A program made the translations under genes and the position numbers. Of a stretch of 20,932 nt of DNA, positions 1,643-20,877 are shown in pieces; positions within the stretch are counted from its first letter, which is position 1, and each line of letters starts with the position of its first letter. The notes beneath the pieces are model-generated. The model worked only from the letters and a program-made list of their open reading frames with translations. It did no database searches and was not told where the DNA came from. This DNA is from a virus: positions 1 to 20,932 of IMG/VR virus record IMGVR_UViG_3300006790_000852; one strand, 5' to 3'.

Positions 1643-2155
1643 TCAAGCCTTAAAAAAAGCGGCATACGTAAATCTATAATCTGGGCAAGCCTGACTGGGC
1701 GGACGTACACTGTGCATGACCCCTGCCTTTAACCACAAAACACGACCAGGCTTAAAAGTCACAGCATGTTCAGCTTCATAATCATGCTCCGAATATATTA
1801 TTGTTTCTCCAGCCCACTCAGGCTTCCACCTAGTATTGCAGTAATATATAAAAGTTTCTAATTCAGGGTGAGTGTGGGGGCAAAAAACATTTGAAGGCTC
1901 GGCAAGGTTGATTACATTATCGACTGGCGTTCTACCCCTAATAAGTTCATTAATTCGAGCGCTGTTATGGCAGTGCAATACACCCATTTCTTGGGCGTCT
2001 TCTTGGGTGTAGGCGCTATACATAATTCGGCGCTGACCATTCACATCACCCCAATGTTTTTCAGCCCATCCGAGTTGATACCTACTCCCAAGTACAAAGT
2101 TAAACATACGCTCCCTATCCTGCGCGGAGTATGCGTTATCAATAATTTCATACAT
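1643..2155 (-). CDS. 2-oxoglutarate/Fe(II)-dependent oxygenase
   Basis: A 170-residue protein with the core of prolyl-4-hydroxylase-type 2OG-Fe(II) oxygenases, which hydroxylate a protein or nucleobase side chain using O2 and 2-oxoglutarate. The iron site is visible as H96-P-E98 within CPHTHPELE and the distal H148 in GVMHSVRP. R161, 13 residues later, is placed to bind 2-oxoglutarate. FIYYCNTRWKPEWAGET and FKPGRVLWLKAG are the usual core strands. Similar enzymes are common in marine phages. The ATG at 2155 overlaps the end of the primase-helicase gene by 8 bases, so the two are translated together. The substrate is unknown: phage DNA bases and host or virion proteins are both possible. Confidence 0.88.
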   Translation of the reverse strand: MYEIIDNAYSAQDRERMFNFVLGSRYQLGWAEKHWGDVNGQRRIMYSAYTQEDAQEMGVLHCHNSARINELIRGRTPVDNVINLAEPSNVFCPHTHPELETFIYYCNTRWKPEWAGETIIYSEHDYEAEHAVTFKPGRVLWLKAGVMHSVRPPSQACPDYRFTYAAFFKA

Positions 2156-7032: not shown

Positions 7033-7307
7033 CCACCTTTAAAAAGTTTAACGAAAGAATTATCCAAGCAGACGAAGTGCTTAGAGAAGATGGTCTGCAA
7101 CTAGAGTCCATCAATGACCGAGTGCATTTTCTAACTATCAGCCTGCATTGCGCTGTTGAGGACGACGAAGTTGAACGTCTAAAGGATGATTTGCAAAGAG
7201 CGCTAGATAAAAAGCGCCACCTGCTTAAACAAATGAACGAGCATAAAACTAATAAGGACAAGATAAATGCAGAAATGGAACAAGAAAAGTACGCCGCCCG
7301 TGGATGA
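7023..7307 (+). CDS. Small coiled-coil protein, unknown function
   Basis: A 94-residue protein, nearly all charged helix, with heptad-like stretches (VERLKDDLQRALDKKRHLLKQMNEH) and a basic end. It starts at GTG 7023, with GAGGAG eight bases upstream, and overlaps the end of the nuclease gene by 10 bases; its own end overlaps the DUF3310 gene by 41 bases. No family is recognised. Its place suggests an accessory factor of the recombination or nucleotide-metabolism set. Confidence 0.72.
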   Translation: MDLATFKKFNERIIQADEVLREDGLQLESINDRVHFLTISLHCAVEDDEVERLKDDLQRALDKKRHLLKQMNEHKTNKDKINAEMEQEKYAARG

Positions 7308-7527
7308 CAACGTCAACCACCCGTCTCACTACACTAACGGCAACGTAGAGTGCATAGATGCTATTCAGTCAGCGCTAACTTCAGCGGAGTTTGAGGGTTA
7401 CTGCAAGGCAAACGCTATTAAGTATCTATGGCGCGCTGGCCTTAAAAAAGACAAGGTTGAGGACTTAAAGAAAGCAAACTGGTACATAACAAAGCTAATA
7501 AACTTTATTTCATCCAGTTCTTCATAA
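7267..7527 (+). CDS. DUF3310 protein (T7 gp1.7-like)
   Basis: An 86-residue protein with the full DUF3310 signature: NHPSHYTNGNVECIDAI, then CKANAIKYLWRAGLKKDKVEDLKKANWYITKLI. The family includes T7 gp1.7, a thymidylate-kinase-like nucleotide kinase that affects sensitivity to dideoxythymidine, so a role in phage nucleotide pools is likely but not shown for this member. ATG 7267 has AAGGA about ten bases upstream and lies inside the preceding gene. The C-terminus is five serines. Its last 23 bases overlap, head to head, the 3' end of the giant late gene on the other strand. Confidence 0.92.
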   Translation: MQKWNKKSTPPVDDNVNHPSHYTNGNVECIDAIQSALTSAEFEGYCKANAIKYLWRAGLKKDKVEDLKKANWYITKLINFISSSSS

Positions 7528-10500
7528 AGTCTGACTTGTTGACGCCGCCACTTCCGCTTCTTCGTTCTCCAGCAACAGCGTCTACAATGCCTTCTCTTAC
7601 GTCTCGGTATCCACCAAGCACAGGTATGCGAGTTGCGGCCACTCGTGCCGCGGCTCGCTCTGGGTAGTTCTTGCTTTCGCTTGAGTCAAATACACCCTGA
7701 GCAAAAGTCATTCCGTCAAATGCAAGGCCGACAGAAGGACCGCCCAAAACCGAAGCTATTCTTTGGCGACCATATACACCATTGTCTGCCTGCTCCGCGG
7801 TTTGGTAAAGAATGTCTGCCAAAAGGCCGAGTCCACCCATCTGAACCATACCCTCTACATAATTACCCCAGAAAGCGTCAGCGCTAATTCCGTATATTTT
7901 TCCATGTACGTTTGCGTCCCAACCAATTGACTCAGCTATATCGTTGATAGAGCGGTCACGAGGTTGCCTGGTGTTTTCTTCACCACGAGCTTGGACGTAG
8001 TCTTTCACAAGGTTTGCACCACCACCACCAACAATTGGCGCTACAGTAGCGAGCATGACTGCTGGTGAGAATCTACGTCCACCACCTGTTTGCGGGTCTG
8101 CGGCAACTGCAAGACGCCCAACGTCATAACTCAGTCTACCCATCATCATTGGGAAAGATTTAAGTTGATAGACAATTTGACCAACAGGAGATTGTGCAAA
8201 CAAAGGTATGTCATTTGCGTTTGGCGTGAATATAGTCTGATTAGAGAACTTAATTACTGCCTCCTGCAACCGAGCCTTCGCGTCAGCCCTCTGAGGGCTG
8301 TCGTTAGGAGACGGTATAAAGCTGTCAAAATCATCAATCCTTTGATTGGTCGCAAGCAATTCGTCTAAGCCGTATGCGCGCAGAATACGATAAGCCTTTT
8401 TAAACTTTCTATTTTGTTGCGCCAGAGGAGCTTGCGGATTGAAGTTTGTTAGAGCAATAGCGTACTCAGCTTTGAACCACTCATGGCCAACGGCAGAGGA
8501 AGCGCTACGCCAGAACCCAGTCCACGGCGAAAGCAGGGTAGCGTTGAAGAAGGACACCGTATTCCTAGATGATTCCGCACCGTACAACCCTGTCATACGC
8601 TCATGTATTTGGTTTTCAAGTGCCGCCCCAATATTACGTGTCATTTTGCGGTACTGAGGATTACTCATGTACTGCCCCATACCCTTGGCAAAAGCCTTCA
8701 AACTTCCAGAGCGCACAAGTGGTAACACGGCATCACCCAACGACGTAAACACCGTTGAGCCAAGCAATGTAATTGCGTTGAAGTTGCGCAATACCTTAGA
8801 CGTTCTGTGTCCATAGTCAGAGAATATACCGTAACCAGCAGTGCCTTTGCGTTGCAAAGACTCAAGTGTGCCTATGGCAAACTTTTCTTGATTTCTGTCT
8901 ATCGGCCCAGGCATATTTTGACGGTCAAGTATTCCGCCAACTATCGCGTCTAAGCGCTTTGAAAACGCAGGTTCTCCGCGTGCAGTATCAAAACTCTTCA
9001 TAAACTGACGCATTGCGGCTTCACCTTTAGGCGCTAGTTTTATCAAGGTCTGAGCCGCGCGACGAGCCGCGGCTTCATCACCCTCAAATGGCATAGGTGA
9101 CTCACGTCTAATTTCCAAACTCTCATCAACTGTATCGTTCATCTTGTTGACAATAATTTTGCGCGACACTTTTTTCGTAGACAAAAGTTTTGCTACAGCA
9201 TCCACCATGCTTTCGGCCGTAACTATGCTCATATAATCGTAAAAGCCATGAGATTCATTGCCATATTTTTCGGCCAAGTCTATGCGACGCACAGCATTGT
9301 CCGCATATTTACTGACAATAGCCTCTAGGTCGTTTTCAAGATACTGACCCACATCATCCAAATGCTCCTTGAACTCATCCAGACGTATCAAGCGTTGGTA
9401 ATCAACGTGGTCGTCGTTAGTGTCACGAGTTCCGTGGGCTGGCGTATAAACCCCATCTTCTTCTACGAGACGTTTGTATACCTTATCCGCACGCTCCATG
9501 GCTCTCTCGAAAGGTATAATGTCATCTTCAAACCTCTCTGCTTCAGACATAAAATACCTTGCCAAACCAGCTTTGAAGTCATCAGGATTGCGCAGTATTT
9601 TTTCTACGCTCCAAACTTGTGGGAAATAGTCTTTAACGCGCCCCACCATTACACCTGCTTCGGTAAGTTCGTAATGGATGTTTTTGAACATATTTTGTAT
9701 TTTTTTGTACGCAAATCTTTCGGCAGTCGTAAGGTTCTCTACTGCTTTTGACCCTGGACCACGCCTGATTGCGTTAACAATTTTTCCGTAAGAACGGGGT
9801 TGGTCCACACCCATAGCATGATGCAGGCTCTTTCCGCCTATGACGTAATCAGTAGATTTGCGCGCCCAGTTTTTGATGCCTCCGCCCCCAGGCAGGCCAG
9901 CAAGAGCTTCAAAGATTGGGGCTACGTGGTTAGACGTGCGTGCGGCTAGACGTTCATAGTGGCCCGTACCCTCCATGCGTGCTGGAGAAATCCAGTCGGC
10001 CACCCAAGACATGCCAAAGCGTCTCATGTTGTGAGAGTTTTCTCCAAATCCTATGTTAAACGCACGCCGAATAGCACTTTGCTGACGGCCATTTGGTACT
10101 TTACCTCTGGATATTTGACCAATTCCAGAAGCCGCGTTAGCGGACACGCCAGCGTTTTGCATTTGCTCTTCTACTGTGATGGACTGAGCTTCGCTCATTT
10201 GCCCCTGCTCTGCCAAGGTGTCCATTACTTGAGCGTTTGTCCTGCTGACGTTGTCCTTACTATAAAGGTATCCTGTTATGTAGCGACTATCGTCAAAGTC
10301 GTCGGCCATAGCGTGTTTAATCTTACCTTCAGCTTCAAACAGCATGGTAAACGGGGCATCAGAAGTTAAGTCTCCATCTTCATGCCCTTTAATTCCATCA
10401 TACCCTACGTCTTGCAAAACCTTATTGAGCTTTTGAGCCGCGTTAGTTACTGAGATTGGTCGCCCAGTGTTCTCTCTGGCAACTTCCTGTATTACGTCTA

Positions 10501-13500
10501 TAAACTCTTGGTGCAGAGCATCGCCTGTAATGTAGCCTCTTGTGCTAATCATATTGATTGGGGCTTCGGTGTCGAATGTTGAGCGCGGGTCAAGGGCATC
10601 CATAACACTTCTAATAAATGTTACATCATCAACTCCATATTCTGCGGATATAGTAAAATCAAGTACGTTTGTTTTACCCAAGTAAACAGGATGATGCTTG
10701 TCTTGGCGGCTTATATTGAAGCGGTCAAGAATATTGTCCAACTCAGTGTTTATAGAAAGTAAGTTGTCATAGACATTGTTTACTTGTTTTTCAAAATGCT
10801 CAACACTTCCTGTCGCCCTTTCCCTGTCAGCCGATTTTGCATTGAGGTGCATAATAGAGTCTTTCATTATCTCCCGCATCTCAAGCAAATCATTATACTC
10901 TTCTATATCAACTTCTCTTGCACCACTCTCACGCAAAGCACCAACCATGGTTTCGTGGTATTGTTGCTCTTGCTCGTTAACATATTCACGTATTTTAACG
11001 CCATTGCCGTAACGCTTATCGGTTACAGTTGGTGGCTCAAGACCGCGTTCACCCAAAATGTGAGGTCTCTTACTACCAACATCAGCAACAGTTAGCATGT
11101 ACACCGTAGGTGGATTGTTTACGTCTTGGTTGCCCGTAAAATCATTGATGGCGTCTTTCCTGTTTTGGCTGGAGTTATTCCAAAAAGCCTCAGTGGTTCT
11201 TTTTAATCCAGACACATCACCGACAGCCTCATCATCATAACGGCTTGGATAGAAAACATTGTCAATGCTGTATTGCACTGATTCTCCGCTAAAGACATTA
11301 CCGTATGCGTCAAGGACGGGGTGAGCCTTTTTAATCCTATTATCCATTTGGCCATTGAGTATGTAAGCAACATGCTGTTTTACTGTATGCACATGGCCAG
11401 GTAAGAAGCCAGTTCCCGCTTCATCAAATGGCTCTGTTCCTGACATGTTGTCAGAAACCTTTTTGACTACATTATTTAGAGCTTGGTCCCAGTTTGCCTG
11501 AGTAACTTCTAACCCCTGCCCACCCATGCTTTTGGGGCCGAATGTTAGACGCCAAAGTTCTTGGTGAATTTTTCCGCGCGGGTCCATAATAACAACTGCC
11601 CTAATGACATCCTGCACAACTTGTTTGGCGTTCTTTTGACCTGTCGCCCCTTCTGATTTAGGCGAAAGATTAGTAGCCAAACTACGGATTTTTTTCCTGA
11701 GTTCGTTAAACTCTATGCTGTCCGTCTCAATTTGCTCATCTAGGTAGTTGCTAGGAGTGAGGTTCGGCATTTCATTGTTAGGGTCGTAAACGTCTATACG
11801 TCTTGCGACTTCGTTTACGTCGCTAACACCCATCATTGCCAAGTGCATGCGGCGATTAGGTCGGCTTGACCCTGTAATGTTTGCCATGCGGTAGAAAACA
11901 GTCCGCATAATATTCATCTTGTCTACGTCTCGGTGGCTTAATTTTTCTTGAGCCACGTTGATACCCGCTCTTGCGCCAGGGCTTACATTAGTTCCTGCAA
12001 TACCTTGAGATTCAGCAATCTCCATTTCAATAGCGTCAAGCGTCCACTGGTCATCTATCAGTTGAGGCTCTACCTCATTTGAAAGTGGGGCAGAGCGCTC
12101 GTTTTCTTTCATTTGACGCGCAATCATTTTGCCGTAATCAGTCTCACCATACTTAGCTAAATCATCTGCAAGCTGGGTTGCTGTAGCAAGCCTATAATTA
12201 ATGGCTTGGCCGTCATCTATCTCAGCTACAGTAGGCGACTTATTTAGCCTTGCGGCATCGGCATTTTTGCGGGTCTCTTTAGTTCGTTTTTCTTGAATAC
12301 GCTTCTTTTTTCTAGTCCCGTCACGCAACATTTTAGAATACTTGGCGTATCCTTTGAGTTCGGACTTGGGAGCAAACTCAATGCCTGCATAACCACCCTT
12401 CATTTTGATGGTTTCTTCTGAAAGTTTATTAAACGCTTTGCGTCCATCGCTTACAATGATGCCCAAAAGCTCGCTGGTCTCGAAACGTGGGTCTCCCGCT
12501 TCCGTTCTGTTTCCGTAAACAATCTGTCTAATTTTTTCTGCGTCAGCTTCTACGTTGCGTGATACTGCGTCATAGCTAAAACCAAGATTTTCAACTTCTT
12601 CTATGCTTAGAGCAGACACATCTTCGCCAAGAGCGTCGTATATTCTTTCATACAAGGTTTGAGACAGCTTGTGGGTCTTACCGAAAAGCATAAAGGGTTT
12701 ACCTTTTTCCCCGACTTGACCCCTTCTCTTATATTCTGGAGCCGCAATACCATACAGTCTGTTGGCAAGCATCTGCGCGTGGAAAAGAATACCATCATCA
12801 TTGCCACTTACTACTGCCTCTAGCAGGTCATCGTGGTGCATAGTCAAATCAATCATTGTCCTATGCACTGACTTACCTGCGTCAGACGTAGGCATCATTA
12901 CGCCGTCAGCTAAAGCCGCGGCTTGCAGATTGTCAGGGATAATTTTACTAAATACTGGAACCAAGTCTGGGTCTACACCCTTTTTGTTAAGGAAGAAATC
13001 AACAACAGACCTAACGTATTTCGCAACTTCTCTCATAAACGGAGATTTGTTCCAGTAGCTCTCTTCTCTAAATTCTGGTGCTAGTCTTTCGTTCATAGCC
13101 CAATTAGCGAACTGCGCGGCAAACCACTCTTGAGGCGTTTCATGGTGATTAGTGTCATATTTGTGGACTCCGACTCGAACCATACCAGTAGGGCCGTCCA
13201 AAAGTTCAGTGTTCGGTTCATCAAGGTTGTATAGACTTTTAGCCAGCTTTGTCTCGTCCACTCGTCCTGTGTCTGCGTCTATATAGCCTTGGGCAACTTT
13301 CCAAAACTCTAGTTTATCAGCAGGAGTTAATATATTTTGATAAGCCCAATGCCCTAGTTCGTGCATGACAGTTCGCATTTTAGGAAGATGGCTCTCTTTG
13401 TCAGAAAGCCTCACATGGTTCATGGCGTCTAGTCGGGTTTTTGAGTAGCCGTCTATTGCGTAGTCTATGAAACCAGACGGGTCGCCCTCTAAAAAAGCAG

Positions 13501-16500
13501 GGGCCAAGTCATCGGCCTGCTCAGATAGTGTTCGCAGAATAGAATTTACCGCTGATATTTCCTTTGCTGACATACTCCTGAGTACAGATTTCAGTTGTTT
13601 TTGTGACTCAGCAATAGTCGCGCCAGGAAATCTAATGTCGTCGGGAACAATGGACTTTCTTAGGTTGTGAAGTCCCGTAAAAAACTCCGCATAACTTCTG
13701 GTTAAATCACCCTGACCTAATCGCGGCCATCCTACCTCGCTCTCTATCATGTTTATGGTCGATACGAAGGTTAATTTATCCACCTCACCTGCGCGCTCTA
13801 CAAGTCGGTTAATAGCACTTGAAACAAAAGCGCGTTTCTCTGGGGGTATAGGCATCCCATCGACCAAGTCTTTCAACCCATCCATTTCCTGCACAAACTT
13901 TACTGGGGTCATATCAACTACTTGTTGAGATGCCTGTTGAGCAGTTAAGTATGTTCTGGAAATTCCATCAGGAGACCAAACCTCAAACTCTTCTGTAGCT
14001 GTTTGAGAGTTGCGAGCGCCTTTTGTATGACCAATTTCAAAGTCATCAATATCTGCTTTTCCAAGAAGGGCTTCTACACCCTTTCCGTCGTCAATTTGGT
14101 TTTGGCCAATGACGCGTATATTTCCTGTTTTTTTATTGCGCAAGGCTAAACGCTTGCCGTTGGAACTTAAAACAGGGACATCAGGAATATTGCTAGTAAC
14201 AGGAGTAAGGCTGTTTGTACCAGTCCTTTTTAACGCTTGGCCTAGCGCAGTTAGGTCGCCATCTAACTCATATTTTTCTACAGCTTTGGCGAGTATATCT
14301 TTGTCTGTTTCAACAGGTACATCTGTTGATGCGTAGTGTGTTTGGTTTGGCCCTTCGCCGCGAGCCATACGCATGTTTGCTTCGTTTTTCCACGATTTGT
14401 TGGTAATTGGGTCATAAAAGTAGGTCTCGCCTTTTTTGGCATACTCAGGCTTGATAATATTTTTCTTGCCATCGCCTCTAGGTAACAAAGACCCTTGGCC
14501 GTCAGCTATGCGCTCTCCACCTTCTGAGACGTAGCGCTGAACGCCCGTGTTCTTAACCAACTTTGTTTTAGTTTGAACGACTTCTTTTACCGCATTTGGA
14601 TTTTCTTCTGTTGGTGCAGGTTTATCAAACCGCACCTCATACTCTTCTTCTATCATTCGGTTAGCGGCGTTTATTGCATTATCAACTCCGTAAATAACTT
14701 TTGAGTCTGGGTCCAATCCCTCTGGGAGTGACGGCGCGCGGCCGATAAACTCGCCGCGTTTAAGGAAGCTCTGTATCTTGTTAAAAGTAGTACGGCCAGC
14801 AGTTGTTTCTGTTGGTGGGTTTGCCAGTGGACCAGTTAAATCGCCGCTACTTTTCTCAATCTCTGAAGCGCGCATGCGCACCACTTTCATGGTGGCGGCA
14901 AGCTCGGCCATTTGCTCAGGAATCCCGTTAGCAATCATATTTTTTGCCAGTTGTTTTACTTTTTTCTTTTCTGTGACAGTCAGTTCTGGCTGGCCACCGA
15001 CATTGTCTATGCTATTTTTCTCCCCCGTGACCCCCTTGTCATCCAGAGCTTCTATCAACTCATTAAAGATGCGGTCCCCTTGTTGCGGGTCTTCTCTTAC
15101 AATTATTGTCCTTGCTACTTCTGGATTTTGCTGTATCAGCTTTGCAAGCATCCCATCCAAGTCGTTATCAATCTTGGTTAGGACGCGCTCTGCTCGTTGT
15201 TGGTAGGGTAGGTCAGGCTCCAAATCCATAGGGTCATACGTTTTAAGAGCTTTAATTAAGTTTGGCCGTTTGATTTGTTTAATTGTGCCGTCCTTTGCTA
15301 CAGGTATAATTCCTTGTGCAACAGCCTCAACGACGTCTTCTTCTGTTTTGCCAAGCTCAGATAGGACTTTAGCAAAGGCAGACTTTTGGCTTTCACTACG
15401 GTATTTAAGTGTTTCGGGTGTAAGCGGCGTTAGTGTTCCTGCGGCTTCTTGCGGCAAGGAAATAGCGCCGTATCCGCGTGAATCAACTGCGTCTTCTGGA
15501 ACTCTTACAACAACCCTACCGCTGGTTTTTTCTCTGAAGCCAGGGAGCAAAAGGTCTCCGTCTTGCATAAGGACGTACTCGACAGGAGACGAGTCCACTG
15601 GTGCGGCCTCTACTGCTGGTTCAGGTGTAACTGCTTCAGGCTCAGGCGTCACAGCTTCAGGCGCAGTGGCAGGCTGAGACGTAGCTGGCTCCGTCGCAGG
15701 TTGCTCACCCTTAGACGCTATAATTTGTTTTACATCTTTGACGCTATATTTGCCTGATTTTGTGCTTGGCGTTACACCCTCAAAATCCGCTTCTGCTAAT
15801 CCAGCGTTTTGCGCCATTCCCCTTACAGCGGGGGTGGTGAAAATATCAGGCAACTCTGTTTTTGTTTCTACGGGCGCAGGAGCTTCTACTGGCGCGGCTT
15901 CAGTAACAGGAGTTTCAACAGGAGTTTCGACAGGAGTTTCTGCGGCTTGAGTTGCTGTAGGCGCAGGTTCAGGCGCTTCACCTTCGGGCTGACGTGAGCC
16001 AGCTTGTAGTATTGCTTCGCTTTCTTTTACTGCTTGGGCTGTAACGTCATCCCCACTGCGAGAAAAGTTTTTATAATCAGCTATAAGTGTGCGTAGCTCG
16101 CGAATACGTTTTTGAGCCTTTTCTACTGTGGCGGCGTTTGGGCTTGCTAAATCTGCGGCAATTTCATTTTGGTAATTAGCAATTCTAGTCGCAAGACCTT
16201 CCATCGAAGCAACAGTTTGTAGTTCTTTTAATATCTGTGCTTCGTTTTCTGTGTCACCTGTTCGGCGCGCTTCAGTTAAGTCTTCTTGCAACTGCACTTG
16301 TCGTTGTTGAATAGCTACTTCTGAGTCAGCTAGTTCTTGTTGCAAACCAGGGAATCTGGGGTCTTCTTGAACATCCTCTCCGATTGCGGCCACTTCGTCT
16401 GGTTCGGGCATATCCAAGCCGTCGATGTTTCCTTCTTCGATTCGGTCAAAGTAGTCGGCTCTTGAGATATTGTTTTTAAGAATCATGGCTATATTTTCTT

Positions 16501-17422
16501 TAGCCATGCCCTCTTCAACTATCCTGTTAATGTCATCGGGGCTAAAACCTAATTCAGATAAACGTGCGTTTTCAGCCTGCAAAGTAAATTGTTTACCAAA
16601 TACACCAAAGACTTGGTCAATCCCTCGGCCCGCAACACGGGCGGGGGCTAATACACCGCTGGCAAGTTTATCTATTTTTGTTGCTCCAGCGCCAGCGCGC
16701 GCTTGAGTAGCGGCCGCGCCACCTGCAAGACCAAACAACCCGCCAAGACCAGCACTTAAACCACCTTCAATTAGCCCCGCCCCTGCAACACGACCAAGAC
16801 TAAACTCATCTTGGATGCCTGTGGCCAAGTCTCGACCTTGTTGCAAAGTATCTTGAACAGCGCCTACACCAGTGCCTACAACACCTTCTGCAATAGCACC
16901 AGCTTTTGCCGCCCTACCTAATATTTGTTTTTGTGTAATGTTGGCGGCAGACCGCGCGGCGGTCTTAGCCGCTATTGCACCTGAGCCAAAGCCAACAAGG
17001 TTTACAGGGTCAGCAAGCGCCGCAAAAGCATTTTGAGCAAACCCACCGAAGCCTCTACCACCCTCACTAAAAGCGTTAGGTAGGCTGTCGAACACCTGCT
17101 TCATACGACCTTTAAGAAGAACCTGACGGTCATCTTGACCCCTCGTCTCCATAATGTCGTTAAAAGCAGAAACAGAGTTCATTGCTTTCCACGTCTGGTC
17201 TTCGTAAAACTGGTCTAACAGTTCTTCGATGTCTGACGGGTCTTCGACATCCCCTTGCTTACCATAATACTCCATCAGTTCAGAAATGAACTGCGGGTCT
17301 TGCAGAGCATCTAGCCCTGTAGAGCTACTTAAAACTCCAAGCGGATTTACGGGGTTTTCAAAACTTGTAAGCTGTTCTTCAGCAAAGCCTGAGCTTAGGG
17401 TCGGGAAATCATCTTGTGCCAC
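7505..17422 (-). CDS. Giant internal virion / ejection protein with metallopeptidase and ART-like modules
   Basis: A 3305-residue multidomain protein, third in a T7 gp14-gp15-gp16-like triad. Domains by residue: 116-250 Gly/Ala-rich and hydrophobic (glycine-zipper-like); 280-470 charged helices; 478-520 and 571-613 Pro/Ala/Glu linkers flanking 529-570, an E3-binding/HeH-like mini-domain; 1354-1358 HELGH followed by E1428/E1432 in HHETPQEWFAAQFANW, a gluzincin pattern; about 2240-2375 an ART-like segment with PVYLGKTNVLDF, GYDGIKG (2340-2346) and a terminal KIKHA; about 2470-3290 a helical region with DYFP, YQLKSFPMMMGRL and hydrophobic stretches, like the C-termini of polyvalent internal virion proteins (LPD38-like). 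Start is GTG 17422 with GGAG six bases upstream. A role in DNA ejection and delivery of the enzyme domains into the host is inference. The family's members vary widely in length. Confidence 0.9.
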   Translation of the reverse strand: MAQDDFPTLSSGFAEEQLTSFENPVNPLGVLSSSTGLDALQDPQFISELMEYYGKQGDVEDPSDIEELLDQFYEDQTWKAMNSVSAFNDIMETRGQDDRQVLLKGRMKQVFDSLPNAFSEGGRGFGGFAQNAFAALADPVNLVGFGSGAIAAKTAARSAANITQKQILGRAAKAGAIAEGVVGTGVGAVQDTLQQGRDLATGIQDEFSLGRVAGAGLIEGGLSAGLGGLFGLAGGAAATQARAGAGATKIDKLASGVLAPARVAGRGIDQVFGVFGKQFTLQAENARLSELGFSPDDINRIVEEGMAKENIAMILKNNISRADYFDRIEEGNIDGLDMPEPDEVAAIGEDVQEDPRFPGLQQELADSEVAIQQRQVQLQEDLTEARRTGDTENEAQILKELQTVASMEGLATRIANYQNEIAADLASPNAATVEKAQKRIRELRTLIADYKNFSRSGDDVTAQAVKESEAILQAGSRQPEGEAPEPAPTATQAAETPVETPVETPVTEAAPVEAPAPVETKTELPDIFTTPAVRGMAQNAGLAEADFEGVTPSTKSGKYSVKDVKQIIASKGEQPATEPATSQPATAPEAVTPEPEAVTPEPAVEAAPVDSSPVEYVLMQDGDLLLPGFREKTSGRVVVRVPEDAVDSRGYGAISLPQEAAGTLTPLTPETLKYRSESQKSAFAKVLSELGKTEEDVVEAVAQGIIPVAKDGTIKQIKRPNLIKALKTYDPMDLEPDLPYQQRAERVLTKIDNDLDGMLAKLIQQNPEVARTIIVREDPQQGDRIFNELIEALDDKGVTGEKNSIDNVGGQPELTVTEKKKVKQLAKNMIANGIPEQMAELAATMKVVRMRASEIEKSSGDLTGPLANPPTETTAGRTTFNKIQSFLKRGEFIGRAPSLPEGLDPDSKVIYGVDNAINAANRMIEEEYEVRFDKPAPTEENPNAVKEVVQTKTKLVKNTGVQRYVSEGGERIADGQGSLLPRGDGKKNIIKPEYAKKGETYFYDPITNKSWKNEANMRMARGEGPNQTHYASTDVPVETDKDILAKAVEKYELDGDLTALGQALKRTGTNSLTPVTSNIPDVPVLSSNGKRLALRNKKTGNIRVIGQNQIDDGKGVEALLGKADIDDFEIGHTKGARNSQTATEEFEVWSPDGISRTYLTAQQASQQVVDMTPVKFVQEMDGLKDLVDGMPIPPEKRAFVSSAINRLVERAGEVDKLTFVSTINMIESEVGWPRLGQGDLTRSYAEFFTGLHNLRKSIVPDDIRFPGATIAESQKQLKSVLRSMSAKEISAVNSILRTLSEQADDLAPAFLEGDPSGFIDYAIDGYSKTRLDAMNHVRLSDKESHLPKMRTVMHELGHWAYQNILTPADKLEFWKVAQGYIDADTGRVDETKLAKSLYNLDEPNTELLDGPTGMVRVGVHKYDTNHHETPQEWFAAQFANWAMNERLAPEFREESYWNKSPFMREVAKYVRSVVDFFLNKKGVDPDLVPVFSKIIPDNLQAAALADGVMMPTSDAGKSVHRTMIDLTMHHDDLLEAVVSGNDDGILFHAQMLANRLYGIAAPEYKRRGQVGEKGKPFMLFGKTHKLSQTLYERIYDALGEDVSALSIEEVENLGFSYDAVSRNVEADAEKIRQIVYGNRTEAGDPRFETSELLGIIVSDGRKAFNKLSEETIKMKGGYAGIEFAPKSELKGYAKYSKMLRDGTRKKKRIQEKRTKETRKNADAARLNKSPTVAEIDDGQAINYRLATATQLADDLAKYGETDYGKMIARQMKENERSAPLSNEVEPQLIDDQWTLDAIEMEIAESQGIAGTNVSPGARAGINVAQEKLSHRDVDKMNIMRTVFYRMANITGSSRPNRRMHLAMMGVSDVNEVARRIDVYDPNNEMPNLTPSNYLDEQIETDSIEFNELRKKIRSLATNLSPKSEGATGQKNAKQVVQDVIRAVVIMDPRGKIHQELWRLTFGPKSMGGQGLEVTQANWDQALNNVVKKVSDNMSGTEPFDEAGTGFLPGHVHTVKQHVAYILNGQMDNRIKKAHPVLDAYGNVFSGESVQYSIDNVFYPSRYDDEAVGDVSGLKRTTEAFWNNSSQNRKDAINDFTGNQDVNNPPTVYMLTVADVGSKRPHILGERGLEPPTVTDKRYGNGVKIREYVNEQEQQYHETMVGALRESGAREVDIEEYNDLLEMREIMKDSIMHLNAKSADRERATGSVEHFEKQVNNVYDNLLSINTELDNILDRFNISRQDKHHPVYLGKTNVLDFTISAEYGVDDVTFIRSVMDALDPRSTFDTEAPINMISTRGYITGDALHQEFIDVIQEVARENTGRPISVTNAAQKLNKVLQDVGYDGIKGHEDGDLTSDAPFTMLFEAEGKIKHAMADDFDDSRYITGYLYSKDNVSRTNAQVMDTLAEQGQMSEAQSITVEEQMQNAGVSANAASGIGQISRGKVPNGRQQSAIRRAFNIGFGENSHNMRRFGMSWVADWISPARMEGTGHYERLAARTSNHVAPIFEALAGLPGGGGIKNWARKSTDYVIGGKSLHHAMGVDQPRSYGKIVNAIRRGPGSKAVENLTTAERFAYKKIQNMFKNIHYELTEAGVMVGRVKDYFPQVWSVEKILRNPDDFKAGLARYFMSEAERFEDDIIPFERAMERADKVYKRLVEEDGVYTPAHGTRDTNDDHVDYQRLIRLDEFKEHLDDVGQYLENDLEAIVSKYADNAVRRIDLAEKYGNESHGFYDYMSIVTAESMVDAVAKLLSTKKVSRKIIVNKMNDTVDESLEIRRESPMPFEGDEAAARRAAQTLIKLAPKGEAAMRQFMKSFDTARGEPAFSKRLDAIVGGILDRQNMPGPIDRNQEKFAIGTLESLQRKGTAGYGIFSDYGHRTSKVLRNFNAITLLGSTVFTSLGDAVLPLVRSGSLKAFAKGMGQYMSNPQYRKMTRNIGAALENQIHERMTGLYGAESSRNTVSFFNATLLSPWTGFWRSASSAVGHEWFKAEYAIALTNFNPQAPLAQQNRKFKKAYRILRAYGLDELLATNQRIDDFDSFIPSPNDSPQRADAKARLQEAVIKFSNQTIFTPNANDIPLFAQSPVGQIVYQLKSFPMMMGRLSYDVGRLAVAADPQTGGGRRFSPAVMLATVAPIVGGGGANLVKDYVQARGEENTRQPRDRSINDIAESIGWDANVHGKIYGISADAFWGNYVEGMVQMGGLGLLADILYQTAEQADNGVYGRQRIASVLGGPSVGLAFDGMTFAQGVFDSSESKNYPERAAARVAATRIPVLGGYRDVREGIVDAVAGERRSGSGGVNKSDFMKNWMK
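10298..10705 (-). other. ADP-ribosyltransferase-like segment of the giant protein
   Basis: Residues about 2240-2375. The order PVYLGKTNVLDF, a helical insert, LQDVGYDGIKG, then FTMLFEAEGKIKHA resembles the C-terminal half of ART-type domains in polyvalent proteins, which often end in a strand and IKSA-like motif. The first half is less clear (about 2040-2120), so activity is not assured. Confidence 0.5.
13088..13405 (-). other. Gluzincin-type metallopeptidase motif region of the giant protein
   Basis: Residues about 1340-1445. TVMHELGHWAYQNIL gives the HExxH zinc motif (H1354, E1355, H1358). E1428 or E1432 in ETPQEWFAAQFANW would be the third ligand, about 70 residues later. The pattern matches the zincin domains found in phage polyvalent proteins. 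Confidence 0.75.
15584..15991 (-). other. E3-binding/HeH-like mini-domain between two Pro/Ala/Glu linkers
   Basis: Residues 478-613 of the giant protein. The core (529-570) reads TTPAVRGMAQNAGL, then FEGVTPSTKSGKYSVKDVKQI. It has the helix, loop and second helix layout of the peripheral subunit-binding domain of 2-oxoacid dehydrogenase E2 subunits. A SAP/HeH-type DNA-binding helix-loop-helix is an alternative. Confidence 0.45.
15902..15941 (-). repeat. Three 12-bp tandem repeats encoding ETPV
   Basis: On the plus strand the unit ACAGGAGTTTC plus one variable base occurs three times in a row (15906-15941). It encodes ETPV-ETPV-ETPV (residues 496-507) in the first linker. A second, more diverged pair, EAVTPEP twice, lies at residues 589-602. 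Both look like expanding low-complexity linker DNA. Confidence 0.85.
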
Positions 17423-17493: not shown

Positions 17494-19347
17494 TTACGGC
17501 AGTGCGCTTATCAAAGCGGCGGCCAAGGCGCGCTGGTCTTTGCTGAATTTTTGATTCCTAGATTCACTCATTCTGCCGCCAGTTACACCCATAGCGGCGG
17601 CATACTGTAAGGCAGTCAACCGCCCTCTATTTGTGTTAATGTCAATGTTGTTCTTACGCAAATAATTAGCCATGGCTTTTGCCGCATCTTTGATTTCGGC
17701 TCCGTCAAACTCTTTATTTTGAGCGTTAAACTGACGGTTTCTGTTTTGAGACCTGGCTCCTAGCGCACGAACTTCATCTTGTTTTTTGCCAAGATTTTCT
17801 ATGTTATTTTTAATTGTTCCTATCATGGAATCAATTTTTGCGTCCGTTTCATTAAGTGCTTTCATTTGGCTTTCAGGCTCGCCACCCTGACCGCGAGTGG
17901 TTGCAAAAAAGTTTGATTGGTTTCTAATCTTCTTTTTTACTTCTATTAACTCTTGTAACGACCTTTGCTGTTGACCTATGGCAGTAGTAATATCATTAAC
18001 GTGTTGGGCATAAGCGGAACTGGTCGCCAATCCAAATTTATTTGTACCTCCGTAAAGCTCCGCTGTGGTTTGAATTTGCAAGGGAGTTGTAGCCTCAATA
18101 TTATTTGCTTGAGTCTGCGTTATATAGCCGTCATCGCCAAAATTTGTTCCTACGTATTGCATAAAGGTTTGAGGCGCATCACCACCTAAACCCCGTATTG
18201 CTAAATACGCTTCCTGTTGCTGACGCTGATACTCAGACGCGGGCATTGTGGCGTTTGGAATAGCGGCATCAATTTCTGCGAGAATATCTTGTGAGGTAGT
18301 ATTATCTGTTGTTTCTAAAATGTTAATGATTTTAGGAATAGCAGTTGGATTTATAACTTGAGTTGCTAATTGTCCCAAGGCGTTCTGTATTGCCTTGTCT
18401 TTAGTGCTGTCTCCGCCAGCAAAGGAAGCAAAGGCTGTTTTTTGAGCTTCGAGCCTTTGTGTCAAAGCTGTATTACCTGCCGCATAAGCCTTATCTAAAG
18501 CCGCAACTTTTTCAGCATCCCACTCATTTCCGCGTATAGCATTGTGAACACCAATGATGTATTCGTCTAGCTCGCCTTCTTTGTTATATCGGTCATAAAA
18601 TTCTGGGCTTAATTTTTCTCTAATTGCAGACAAATCACCCATGCCGATGCTCTTGGACAAAACGGGGTCTTTTACAAAATCAGCCGCTTCTTTAAAAACC
18701 CTATCCCTAATGCTTCTATCGTAGTTACTAAATTTGCCTTCCAGTAAGTTGCGCGCGGACTCTCCTTGTAGGTACACAGGCAAAGAACCCCGCAAAGACT
18801 CAAAGTCCATACCTGATTCCATCATTCCTTGTATTTGGTCGCTGTTCTCACCAAGACCCGTATAGATAATATTATTAGCTAATGTATCAGCTCTTCTTGA
18901 AAGACCGTCCAAAGTTTTTTTAATTTGAGCATCTCTCGCTGGGTCGCCAGGTAAGCTGGAGCCAAACATGTTTTGCGTTTCTGTTAAGGCACTTTTCACA
19001 TCACCAGTGTTTTTAAATTGATTTGTAAAAAATTCTTCGACGCTGTTAACAAATCCTGTCTCTTCTTCAATAGCTTCAAGTTGCCGTTTTCTATCTCTAA
19101 TTAAACGGTTATTTCTGTTTTCTGCCGCAATACGCTCCAATGCCGCGCCAGTTGCGTTTCCAGGCCGTAGAAAAAAATCAGCCCCTACCAAAGAGTCTGT
19201 GAAGTTTTGTAAGTCCAATGCAGTCGCATACGGGTTATCTCTGCGAAAATCCTCAAAGGCTTTTGCAATTGCAACGCGGCGCGTATCGTTAGCCGTCTTT
19301 TGTTCGCGCATGCCTTCGGCGGCATCAATAGAAAACATTCCAAACAT
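17494..19347 (-). CDS. Internal virion protein, T7 gp15-like position
   Basis: A 617-residue, mostly helical, Gln/Asn/Ala-rich soluble protein without Cys-rich or membrane segments. Charged helices occur at about 60-100 (ERIAAENRNNRLIRDRKRQLEAIEEE) and 450-540 (QRSLQELIEVKKKIRN; SMIGTIKNNIENLGKKQDEVRAL). The C-terminus (KAMANYLRKNNIDIN, then RALAAALISALP) is amphipathic. I recognise no catalytic motif. Its place between a short gp14-like and a giant gp16-like gene suggests the periplasm-spanning ejection tube protein, as T7 gp15; this rests on order and character, not on sequence similarity. ATG 19347 has AAGGAG eight bases upstream, overlapping the stop of the upstream gene. A 71-base gap separates it from the giant gene, the largest gap in this block. 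Confidence 0.85.
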   Translation of the reverse strand: MFGMFSIDAAEGMREQKTANDTRRVAIAKAFEDFRRDNPYATALDLQNFTDSLVGADFFLRPGNATGAALERIAAENRNNRLIRDRKRQLEAIEEETGFVNSVEEFFTNQFKNTGDVKSALTETQNMFGSSLPGDPARDAQIKKTLDGLSRRADTLANNIIYTGLGENSDQIQGMMESGMDFESLRGSLPVYLQGESARNLLEGKFSNYDRSIRDRVFKEAADFVKDPVLSKSIGMGDLSAIREKLSPEFYDRYNKEGELDEYIIGVHNAIRGNEWDAEKVAALDKAYAAGNTALTQRLEAQKTAFASFAGGDSTKDKAIQNALGQLATQVINPTAIPKIINILETTDNTTSQDILAEIDAAIPNATMPASEYQRQQQEAYLAIRGLGGDAPQTFMQYVGTNFGDDGYITQTQANNIEATTPLQIQTTAELYGGTNKFGLATSSAYAQHVNDITTAIGQQQRSLQELIEVKKKIRNQSNFFATTRGQGGEPESQMKALNETDAKIDSMIGTIKNNIENLGKKQDEVRALGARSQNRNRQFNAQNKEFDGAEIKDAAKAMANYLRKNNIDINTNRGRLTALQYAAAMGVTGGRMSESRNQKFSKDQRALAAALISALP

Positions 19348-19359
19348 CTATATCACTCC

Positions 19360-20877
19360 TTATGCCTTCCCGAAGAGTTTGTTGTACCAACCACTTCCGC
19401 CACTATATACGCCGTCACTATCATACGACCCACCGTATCTGTCATCCAAGAAGCTACCGAATCCAGTTATAGCATCTTGCATATATTGACCACCCAGTTT
19501 ACCTGCCTTAGAACCCATCGCCATGGCGTCGGCCATTCCTTTGTTTGCTGACGCCAATTGGGAGCCTAGCATTGAGTTAATATTTGTCAGGTCAAGCATT
19601 TGATTGGGCATACCTGGCATATTCAGTCCAGCAAGCGCATTGTATTGAGTGCGATTGCCATACGGGTTGCTCATGGAAAGCAAGTCCGCAACACCAGAAG
19701 AGGGCGCGCCATATATTTTAGCCAGACTATTTATACTCATCGGTCCAGAAACACCTTGGTTAGACTTAGTCGGCCCCATCGCTAGATAGTTGTTCACTGC
19801 TGACCCTAAGTTTCTATCAAGAATACCGCTTGAACTACGTCTTACATTTGCGTCTAGGTTAAGACCTGTGGTTCCAGCCATGGCTGTGTTAGACAACTTG
19901 TCCTGAAGAGCCTGTCTAAGCAAAGCAAATCGGTCTGTTTTAATTTTATTTTCGCCAGTGATTTCAGCAAGTGCTTCGGCATAAGATTGTTGCGCGGCTT
20001 TCTGTACGCTGGGCGCTACGCGCGCCAGCACTTCTGCACGTCTAGCGTTCGAGTCTGCACCATCTGTTCCAACGCCGCGTCTGATAAGGTCTGACTCAGT
20101 TTTAGATAGCATCTGGTCTACCGCGCGCTCGACCTCTTCGTTAAGAACCCTGAACTTTTCATCAGCGCGCTCACCTATTTCCTCTTCTCCTGCAAGCTCA
20201 GGCGTTTGCATGTTGCCTTGCGCATTGAGAATGGCTGTCAATTCATCGCGTGTATTTGACGTCTGCCGCAGTATATCGTCAGCTAAATCTCTTTCACGTT
20301 GAGCTTCACTCGCACGCATCGCACGGTCTTCGAGGAACCTTTCTTCGCGGTTTTTCATTTCTCTGTCTAAGCGAGCTTGCGCACTGTTCATATACTCGCG
20401 CTGTTCTTCGCGTTCTTTTGCGGCAATACGACGTTCGCGCTCTAACTGCTCCAGCGCAAACCGTCTTTCTTCTTTCCGTATTCTTTTGTCGTTTGCTATC
20501 TGTTCTAAATCAAACATACGCCGTTCGCGTGCCGCGGCCTCCAGCGCTCTTTGCTGTTCTGATATTCTTCTGTTTTGCTCAAGCGCAAACTGCTCGCCCA
20601 TTTCATCTTGCTCACGCATATACCTCTTGGTATCCAAGCGCTCGTTCATAATTTCGTTGAAGAACGCCATATCTCTTTCGTACTGCTCTTGCGCCTGCTG
20701 TCTCATTCTTTCTTGTTGAGCAAAATCAATCATCATTAAATTTTGCTGTTGTTGCCTAGCATCGCGCGCTAAAGCGGCGTTATACTTTTGCCACGCCTGG
20801 GCGTTTTTCGCCGCTTTGCGTGAGCTAAATATACCGTAGACGTTAGAGGCTACATTGAAAGCAGTACCGAAGCTCAT
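19360..20877 (-). CDS. Internal virion protein, T7 gp14-like position, long coiled coil
   Basis: A 505-residue protein. The first 20 residues (MSFGTAFNVASNVYGIFSS) are weakly hydrophobic and may touch a membrane. Residues about 25-215 form a very long Arg/Glu/Gln-rich coiled coil (for example RRFALEQLERERRIAAKERE). The middle (about 230-340) is helical; the last 150 residues are Gly/Ser/Asn/Met-rich and end in a Gly/Tyr/Ser segment before WYNKLFGKA. Members of the gp14-type group in podoviruses often start MSFG-like and carry such helices, and this is the first of three late genes in the T7 order 14-15-16, so an outer-membrane ejection-channel role is inferred. ATG 20877 has AGGGGG upstream and lies one base after the stop of the preceding gene. 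Confidence 0.85.
   Translation of the reverse strand: MSFGTAFNVASNVYGIFSSRKAAKNAQAWQKYNAALARDARQQQQNLMMIDFAQQERMRQQAQEQYERDMAFFNEIMNERLDTKRYMREQDEMGEQFALEQNRRISEQQRALEAAARERRMFDLEQIANDKRIRKEERRFALEQLERERRIAAKEREEQREYMNSAQARLDREMKNREERFLEDRAMRASEAQRERDLADDILRQTSNTRDELTAILNAQGNMQTPELAGEEEIGERADEKFRVLNEEVERAVDQMLSKTESDLIRRGVGTDGADSNARRAEVLARVAPSVQKAAQQSYAEALAEITGENKIKTDRFALLRQALQDKLSNTAMAGTTGLNLDANVRRSSSGILDRNLGSAVNNYLAMGPTKSNQGVSGPMSINSLAKIYGAPSSGVADLLSMSNPYGNRTQYNALAGLNMPGMPNQMLDLTNINSMLGSQLASANKGMADAMAMGSKAGKLGGQYMQDAITGFGSFLDDRYGGSYDSDGVYSGGSGWYNKLFGKA

What the first reader, a model, noticed from the sequence alone, without database searches (positions are those of the whole stretch)
7505..17422. 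A 3305-residue ejection-type protein that carries several enzyme-like modules
The sequence shows one unbroken 9.9-kb frame with a glycine-rich N-terminus, a zincin motif, an ART-like segment and a long internal-virion-like C-terminus. Phage polyvalent proteins and T7 gp16/N4 vRNAP-type proteins are known to enter the host with DNA. The inference is that this protein delivers a peptidase and perhaps an ADP-ribosyltransferase at the moment of infection.
Basis: partly seen in the sequence, partly recalled or inferred. Interest (0 to 1): 0.72.

Follow-up and report, generated by a model that had tools for sequence, protein, structure and literature searches.

The report
Giant phage-injected protein with one peptidase
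A marine phage related to Roseobacter phage CRP-810 encodes a 3305-residue protein that is probably carried in the virion and pushed into the cell with the DNA; it keeps a metallopeptidase site found in every relative examined, but the ADP-ribosyltransferase that most relatives carry at the same place has lost two of its three catalytic residues here.

Summary
The open frame is real: 3305 aa, minus strand 7505-17422, GTG start behind GGAG, under purifying selection, and one intact frame in over 20 uncultured relatives. The window is a fragment of a CRP-810-type phage. The N-terminal ~190 residues match internal virion protein D of pelagiphages; the last 885 match virion-structural PHROGs and, in 7 of 29 members, the T7 gp16 family. 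The gene ends an ejection-type cassette (505, 617, 3305 aa). The zincin is confirmed by sequence: HExxH plus the downstream Glu are intact in all 53 proteins that cover it. A second zincin, intact in 19 of 62 members, is degenerate here. The ART is the main correction: relatives carry a genuine ART-PolyVal domain with the published H-Y-D triad (43 of 67), but this protein reads L-K-D, Pfam sees nothing, and its whole 13-member clade lacks the histidine. So the likely cargo is a self-processing (or host-cutting) peptidase on a gp16-like ejection protein, with former effector regions kept for non-catalytic reasons. Virion presence, injection and cleavage were not shown. The kind is known (polyvalent or ejection protein); the family pattern, a universal zincin with repeatedly lost ART and second zincin, appears undescribed.

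The parts
7505..17422 (-). giant ORF, 3305 aa, GTG start with GGAG ribosome-binding-like site
   Evidence: one frame in relatives L002, L003, L013, L016, L025, L034 and others; dN/dS 0.06-0.23 in every segment where it could be computed against L002
16727..17305 (-). aa 40-232: N-terminal region homologous to internal virion protein D of autographivirid pelagiphages; Gly/Ala-rich second half
   Evidence: tblastn to HTVC019P/121P/168P; hhalign with HTVC121P IVP-D prob 99.6, E 2.3e-24, 190 columns; PHROG 342 in 3 of 24 members, best 5.8e-6
15701..15838 (-). aa 529-574: small motif that resembles the E3_binding (peripheral-subunit-binding) domain, in a Pro/Ala/Glu-rich linker
   Evidence: Pfam PF02817 hits one relative, 1.1e-5, not the window; resemblance by eye in the window
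12923..13435 (-). aa 1330-1500: zincin-like metallopeptidase domain 1; HELGH at aa 1354-1358, Glu ligand in PQEWFA at aa 1432; boundaries approximate
   Evidence: HEHE intact 53/53; AF2 helices with both motifs in blocks of pLDDT 85-91; hhalign to zincin region of Podoviridae ctfjg026 3859-aa protein prob 97.9; sub-threshold match to Pro-Pro endopeptidase at the Glu helix
11423..11635 (-). aa 1930-2000: position of a second zincin (HEIGH...EEWFxE) in CRP-810 and other relatives; degenerate here (KQVVQ)
   Evidence: intact in 19 of 62 members
10247..11122 (-). aa 2101-2392: former ART-PolyVal region; triad L-K-D instead of H-Y-D, GYDG and YLYSKDNV kept
   Evidence: Pfam PF18760 in 16 of 30 members but not the window; over cut-off in L065 and L025; triad table
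7508..10162 (-). aa 2421-3305: C-terminal virion-structural / gp16-like region, mostly helical
   Evidence: PHROG 684, 6958, 16310, 30152 and (7 members) 342; AF2 mean pLDDT 62.6; no PDB fold match
17494..19347 (-). 617-aa gene directly upstream; syntenic partner (615-873 aa in relatives), in the place of T7 gp15 / N4 gp51
   Evidence: by position, no sequence link to T7 gp15 or N4 gp51 found
19360..20877 (-). 505-aa gene, first of the three in this fragment; homologue of CRP-810 gp38
   Evidence: blastp 26% over 461 columns, E 4e-30

Best explanation
The protein is the giant internal virion (ejection) protein of a CRP-810-type marine phage. It is most likely packed with its two upstream partners and passes into the cell ahead of or with the DNA, its N-terminal part helping to cross the envelope and its C-terminal part holding it in the virion core, in the manner of T7 gp16 and N4 vRNAP. 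Its one intact recognised enzyme site is a zincin peptidase, whose most likely job is to cut the giant chain itself, in the head or after entry. The former ART and second zincin regions are no longer catalytic and are kept for structure or binding. Shown: reading frame, family, selection, motif states, homology of both ends. Inferred: packaging, ejection, peptidase activity, and self as substrate.
For: Homology of the N-terminus to pelagiphage internal virion protein D and of the C-terminus to virion-structural PHROGs and PHROG 342. A 615-873-aa partner gene ends within 100 nt of the giant frame in 20 of 23 loci. Fold match of aa 1225-2420 to three phage 'large polyvalent protein associated domain' models, E 1.6e-13 to 8.6e-11. 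Zincin HEHE 53/53 while the ART histidine and the second zincin change at least 2 and 4 times on the tree, so keeping the peptidase does not depend on having an ART to release. Purifying selection on the whole chain, including the former ART (dN/dS about 0.09) and former second zincin (0.08). Iyer et al. propose self-processing by such zincins, with P1 DdrB cleaved before packaging (PMC5512222).
Against: No virion proteomics found in the CRP-810 paper. N4 vRNAP, with a HExxH domain, is packaged unprocessed (PMC5512222). No significant PDB fold match to a zincin. The match of the C-terminal profile to T7 gp16 itself is not significant. A host substrate cannot be excluded.
Confidence: 0.6

Rival explanations
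1. The zincin is an injected effector that cuts a host protein (for example a defence or envelope protein) rather than the chain itself.
For: Iyer et al. list this as an alternative for polyvalent zincins. The peptidase is universal, even in lineages that lost the other enzymes, as a needed host-directed activity would be.
Against: Family members are reported from quite different hosts (Roseobacter, SAR11, Sphingomonadaceae: PMC11288001), which would need one conserved host target; no target is known.
Confidence: 0.2
2. The HExxH domain is now structural (zinc-binding or scaffold), needed for packaging but not proteolytic; the protein is purely a part of the ejection machine.
For: The MPTase region of N4 vRNAP is required for encapsidation although the protein is packaged uncut (PMC5512222). 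Two other enzyme regions of this protein lost catalysis and are still under selection.
Against: The general-base Glu is invariant along with the ligands, 53/53, which mere zinc binding does not require.
Confidence: 0.12
3. The window protein is an active ADP-ribosyltransferase with a divergent active site.
For: The position is homologous to true ART domains, the GYDG Asp is kept, and the region is under selection.
Against: His and Tyr of the H-Y-D triad are absent (L-K) in the window and its near kin; the His is gone in all 13 clade members; Pfam finds no ART.
Confidence: 0.03
4. The giant frame is not a virion protein but an intracellular polyvalent protein made after infection.
For: No proteomics; the function of aa 640-1225 is unknown.
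Against: Homology of both ends to virion proteins and place in the structural operon.
Confidence: 0.05

Closest known systems
Roseobacter phage CRP-810 gp36/gp35/gp34 (OR671924; CRP-810-type family, PMC11288001)
   Same: Homologous over the whole length, same gene order, same zincin 1
   Different: The record splits the stretch into three overlapping ORFs and only gp36 is called internal virion protein D; CRP-810 keeps the second zincin and the intact ART triad, which the window has lost
Polyvalent proteins of phages (Iyer et al. 2017, PMC5512222)
   Same: Very large, multi-domain, zincin(s) plus ART-PolyVal in the family, likely virion-carried
   Different: In this member only one enzymatic site appears intact; the ends resemble internal virion protein D
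N4 virion RNA polymerase (3500 aa, PMC12633501)
   Same: Giant last gene of an ejection cassette, HExxH domain followed by a large helical C-terminal domain
   Different: No RNA polymerase found in ours; profile comparison aligns the two HExxH regions but not significantly (probability 1.2); C-terminal regions do not match
T7 gp16 / pelagiphage internal virion protein D
   Same: Place in operon; N-terminal homology to the pelagiphage version; PHROG 342 hits in some members
   Different: 2.5 times longer; no lytic transglycosylase domain found; an enzyme region lies between the two ends

Membership tests
Polyvalent proteins (Iyer et al. 2017) | several domains of disparate biochemical activity in one chain | tested here: inconclusive
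   Family: yes (zincins plus ART-PolyVal). Window: one intact enzyme site, others degenerate.
Polyvalent proteins (Iyer et al. 2017) | zincin-like MPTase with HExxH and a Glu in the next conserved helix | tested here: met
   HELGH aa 1354, Glu aa 1432; 53/53 in family; both on predicted helices. By sequence only; PDB fold search found no zincin
Polyvalent proteins (Iyer et al. 2017) | delivered into the host with the DNA | not testable with these tools
   Needs virion and infected-cell proteomics
ART-PolyVal (PF18760, H-Y-D clade) | H, Y, D active-site residues | tested here: not met
   Window L-K-D; family 43/67 H-Y-D; triad as defined in PMC5512222
ART-PolyVal (PF18760, H-Y-D clade) | match to the Pfam profile | tested here: not met
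   No match in window; 16 of 30 relatives match, L065 33.9 and L025 31.5 bits against cut-off 31.2
Internal virion protein D (T7 gp16 family, PHROG 342) | sequence match at the ends | tested here: met
   At family level: C-terminus, 7/29; N-terminus, 3/24; pelagiphage IVP-D against the profile that includes the window. The window's own sequence is not among the PHROG 342 hits listed for it
Internal virion protein D (T7 gp16 family, PHROG 342) | N-terminal lytic transglycosylase (endolysin) domain, as in T7 gp16 | tested here: not met
   No such Pfam match in the window; the N-terminus is of the pelagiphage type instead and does not match T7 gp16
N4 vRNAP-like proteins | T7-like RNA polymerase domain | tested here: not met
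   No Pfam or PHROG RNAP match in the whole protein
CRP-810-type phage family | shared core genes and synteny | tested here: met
   Prim-Pol 57.7% identical; Cas4-type nuclease, Sak4/AAA ATPase and giant gene in the same layout

The most novel reading that the evidence does not exclude
In this family the zincin cuts the ejected giant chain into an N-terminal channel part, a central cargo part and a C-terminal core part, and the cargo part turns over in evolution: active ART and second peptidase in some lineages, catalytically dead but conserved binding modules (perhaps decoys) in others. The split of CRP-810's gene near two of these borders would then mirror the cleavage map.
Probability: 0.12. 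Interest if true: 0.7.

Novelty: new member of a known kind. Interest (0 to 1): 0.4.

Why it matters
CRP-810-type phages are reported as globally distributed, and their published description names only the first ~380 residues of this protein and mentions neither a peptidase nor an ADP-ribosyltransferase. Knowing that the whole ~3000-residue chain is one gene with a universal peptidase site and an ART that is lost repeatedly gives a natural experiment: sister phages with and without an injected ART, and a direct test of the 2017 proposal that zincins process polyvalent proteins.

Tried and rejected
Pfam and PHROG scans of the window protein alone gave nothing useful for the enzyme region (the ANIS5 match to aa 2199-2244 is below cut-off and lies in a predicted long helix, so discarded). 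PDB sequence search with the central profile gave only coiled-coil and sub-threshold hits; with the N-terminal profile, designed helical repeats and low-scoring peroxidases, taken as composition effects; with the C-terminal profile, nothing. Fold searches against the PDB for both models: no significant match; the models are low-confidence or multi-domain (pTM 0.60 and 0.40), so this neither supports nor refutes the folds. Homology with N4 vRNAP and T7 gp16 by direct profile comparison: not significant. RNA-polymerase content considered and rejected for lack of any match. Pseudogene decay of the ART region considered and rejected by dN/dS, with the caveat that synonymous sites are near saturation. 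The tree is a quick one with some long branches and near-duplicate rows, so the counts of changes are minimal and unrooted.

Full report
What the window is. The 20.9-kb record is a virus fragment. Its best cultured relative is Roseobacter phage CRP-810: the primase/helicase is 57.7% identical and the gene layout agrees, with early genes on one strand and the structural operon converging on them. CRP-810 founded a described family of marine phages, most with an integrase (PMC11288001).

The observation. The frame 7505-17422 on the minus strand is intact, 3305 codons, GTG start behind TGGAGAACCTA. Random sequence of this composition would hold such a frame with probability about 10^-72. Homologues are one frame in more than 20 complete uncultured loci, 2917-3387 aa stop to stop. 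In CRP-810's record the same stretch is three overlapping ORFs, of which only the first is called internal virion protein D; the gp35/gp34 border sits on a 32-nt tandem duplication, and its nearest relative L057 runs through that point in one frame, so the split may be peculiar to that record. All segments where dN/dS could be computed against L002 give 0.06-0.23 (synonymous sites are near saturation, so the values are rough).

Ends of the protein. The N-terminal region matches pelagiphage internal virion protein D (tblastn; hhalign 99.6% over 190 columns). The last 885 residues match PHROG 684, 6958 and 30152 (virion structural) in 25-28 of 29 members and PHROG 342 (internal virion protein with endolysin domain) in 7. 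Directly upstream stand a 617-aa and a 505-aa gene; a partner of 615-873 aa ends within 100 nt of the giant frame in 20 of 23 loci. The order resembles T7 genes 14-15-16 and the N4 ejection cassette.

Zincin. HELGH at aa 1354 and Glu 1432 in PQEWFA. Across the relatives fetched with the C-terminal alignment plus CRP-810 and the window, H, E, H and E are intact in 53 of 53 that cover the site. AlphaFold puts them on two helices in blocks of pLDDT 85-91. A 3859-aa podovirus protein matches the region with probability 97.9. A PDB fold search with the 1196-residue model found nothing significant, so the fold is supported by sequence only. The viral fold library gave three strong matches, all named large polyvalent protein associated domain-containing proteins.

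Second zincin and ART. CRP-810 and 18 other members have a second HExxH with EEWFxE; 43 of 62 members, the window among them, do not. Pfam ART-PolyVal is found in 16 of 30 members, two shown over the curated cut-off, never in the window. Iyer et al. define this ART by H, Y and D; 43 of 67 members have H-Y-D, the window has L-K-D. The loss of the histidine is shared by the 13-member clade of the window and occurs apart in L082/L083/L085 and in the Poseidonocella locus L089. The lost regions are still under purifying selection.

Interpretation. The peptidase site is kept where the ART and second zincin are gone, so its job is not just to free them. The simplest reading is a processing peptidase of a gp16-like ejection protein, as proposed for polyvalent proteins; host cleavage or a structural role remain open. 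N4 vRNAP offers the nearest architectural parallel, a HExxH domain followed by a large helical domain, but relatedness was not demonstrated. Nothing here shows packaging, injection or catalysis.

Noticed in passing
L006 (CRP-810 record 24061-24160 and 30065-30111): The CRP-810 homologue is annotated as three overlapping ORFs; a 32-nt tandem duplication lies at the gp35/gp34 overlap, and its nearest relative L057 is in one frame there. L044 also seems to be broken relative to its close relative L043.
   Followed up: partly
window 7267-7527 and 7505: CRP-810 has holin and GH108 endolysin genes 3' of the giant gene; in the window the giant gene overlaps the end of the convergent 86-aa gene and no lysis genes lie there. 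PF05838 was found in CRP-810 but not in six relatives of 52-59 kb.
   Followed up: partly
window 15701-15838: A motif like the E3_binding (peripheral-subunit-binding) domain sits in the Pro/Ala/Glu-rich linker of the giant protein; one relative hits PF02817 at 1.1e-5.
   Followed up: partly
L089 2603-12436: A Poseidonocella sp. HB161398 scaffold of 292 kb carries a CRP-810-type locus with a 3277-aa version that keeps zincin 1 and has lost the ART histidine; the family paper already mentions a Poseidonocella prophage.
   Followed up: partly
window 1643-2155: A 170-aa 2OG-Fe(II) oxygenase-like gene (PF13640, 28.7 bits against cut-off 27) lies next to the primase; CRP-810 has one near the same place (gp21). 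Substrate unknown.
   Followed up: no
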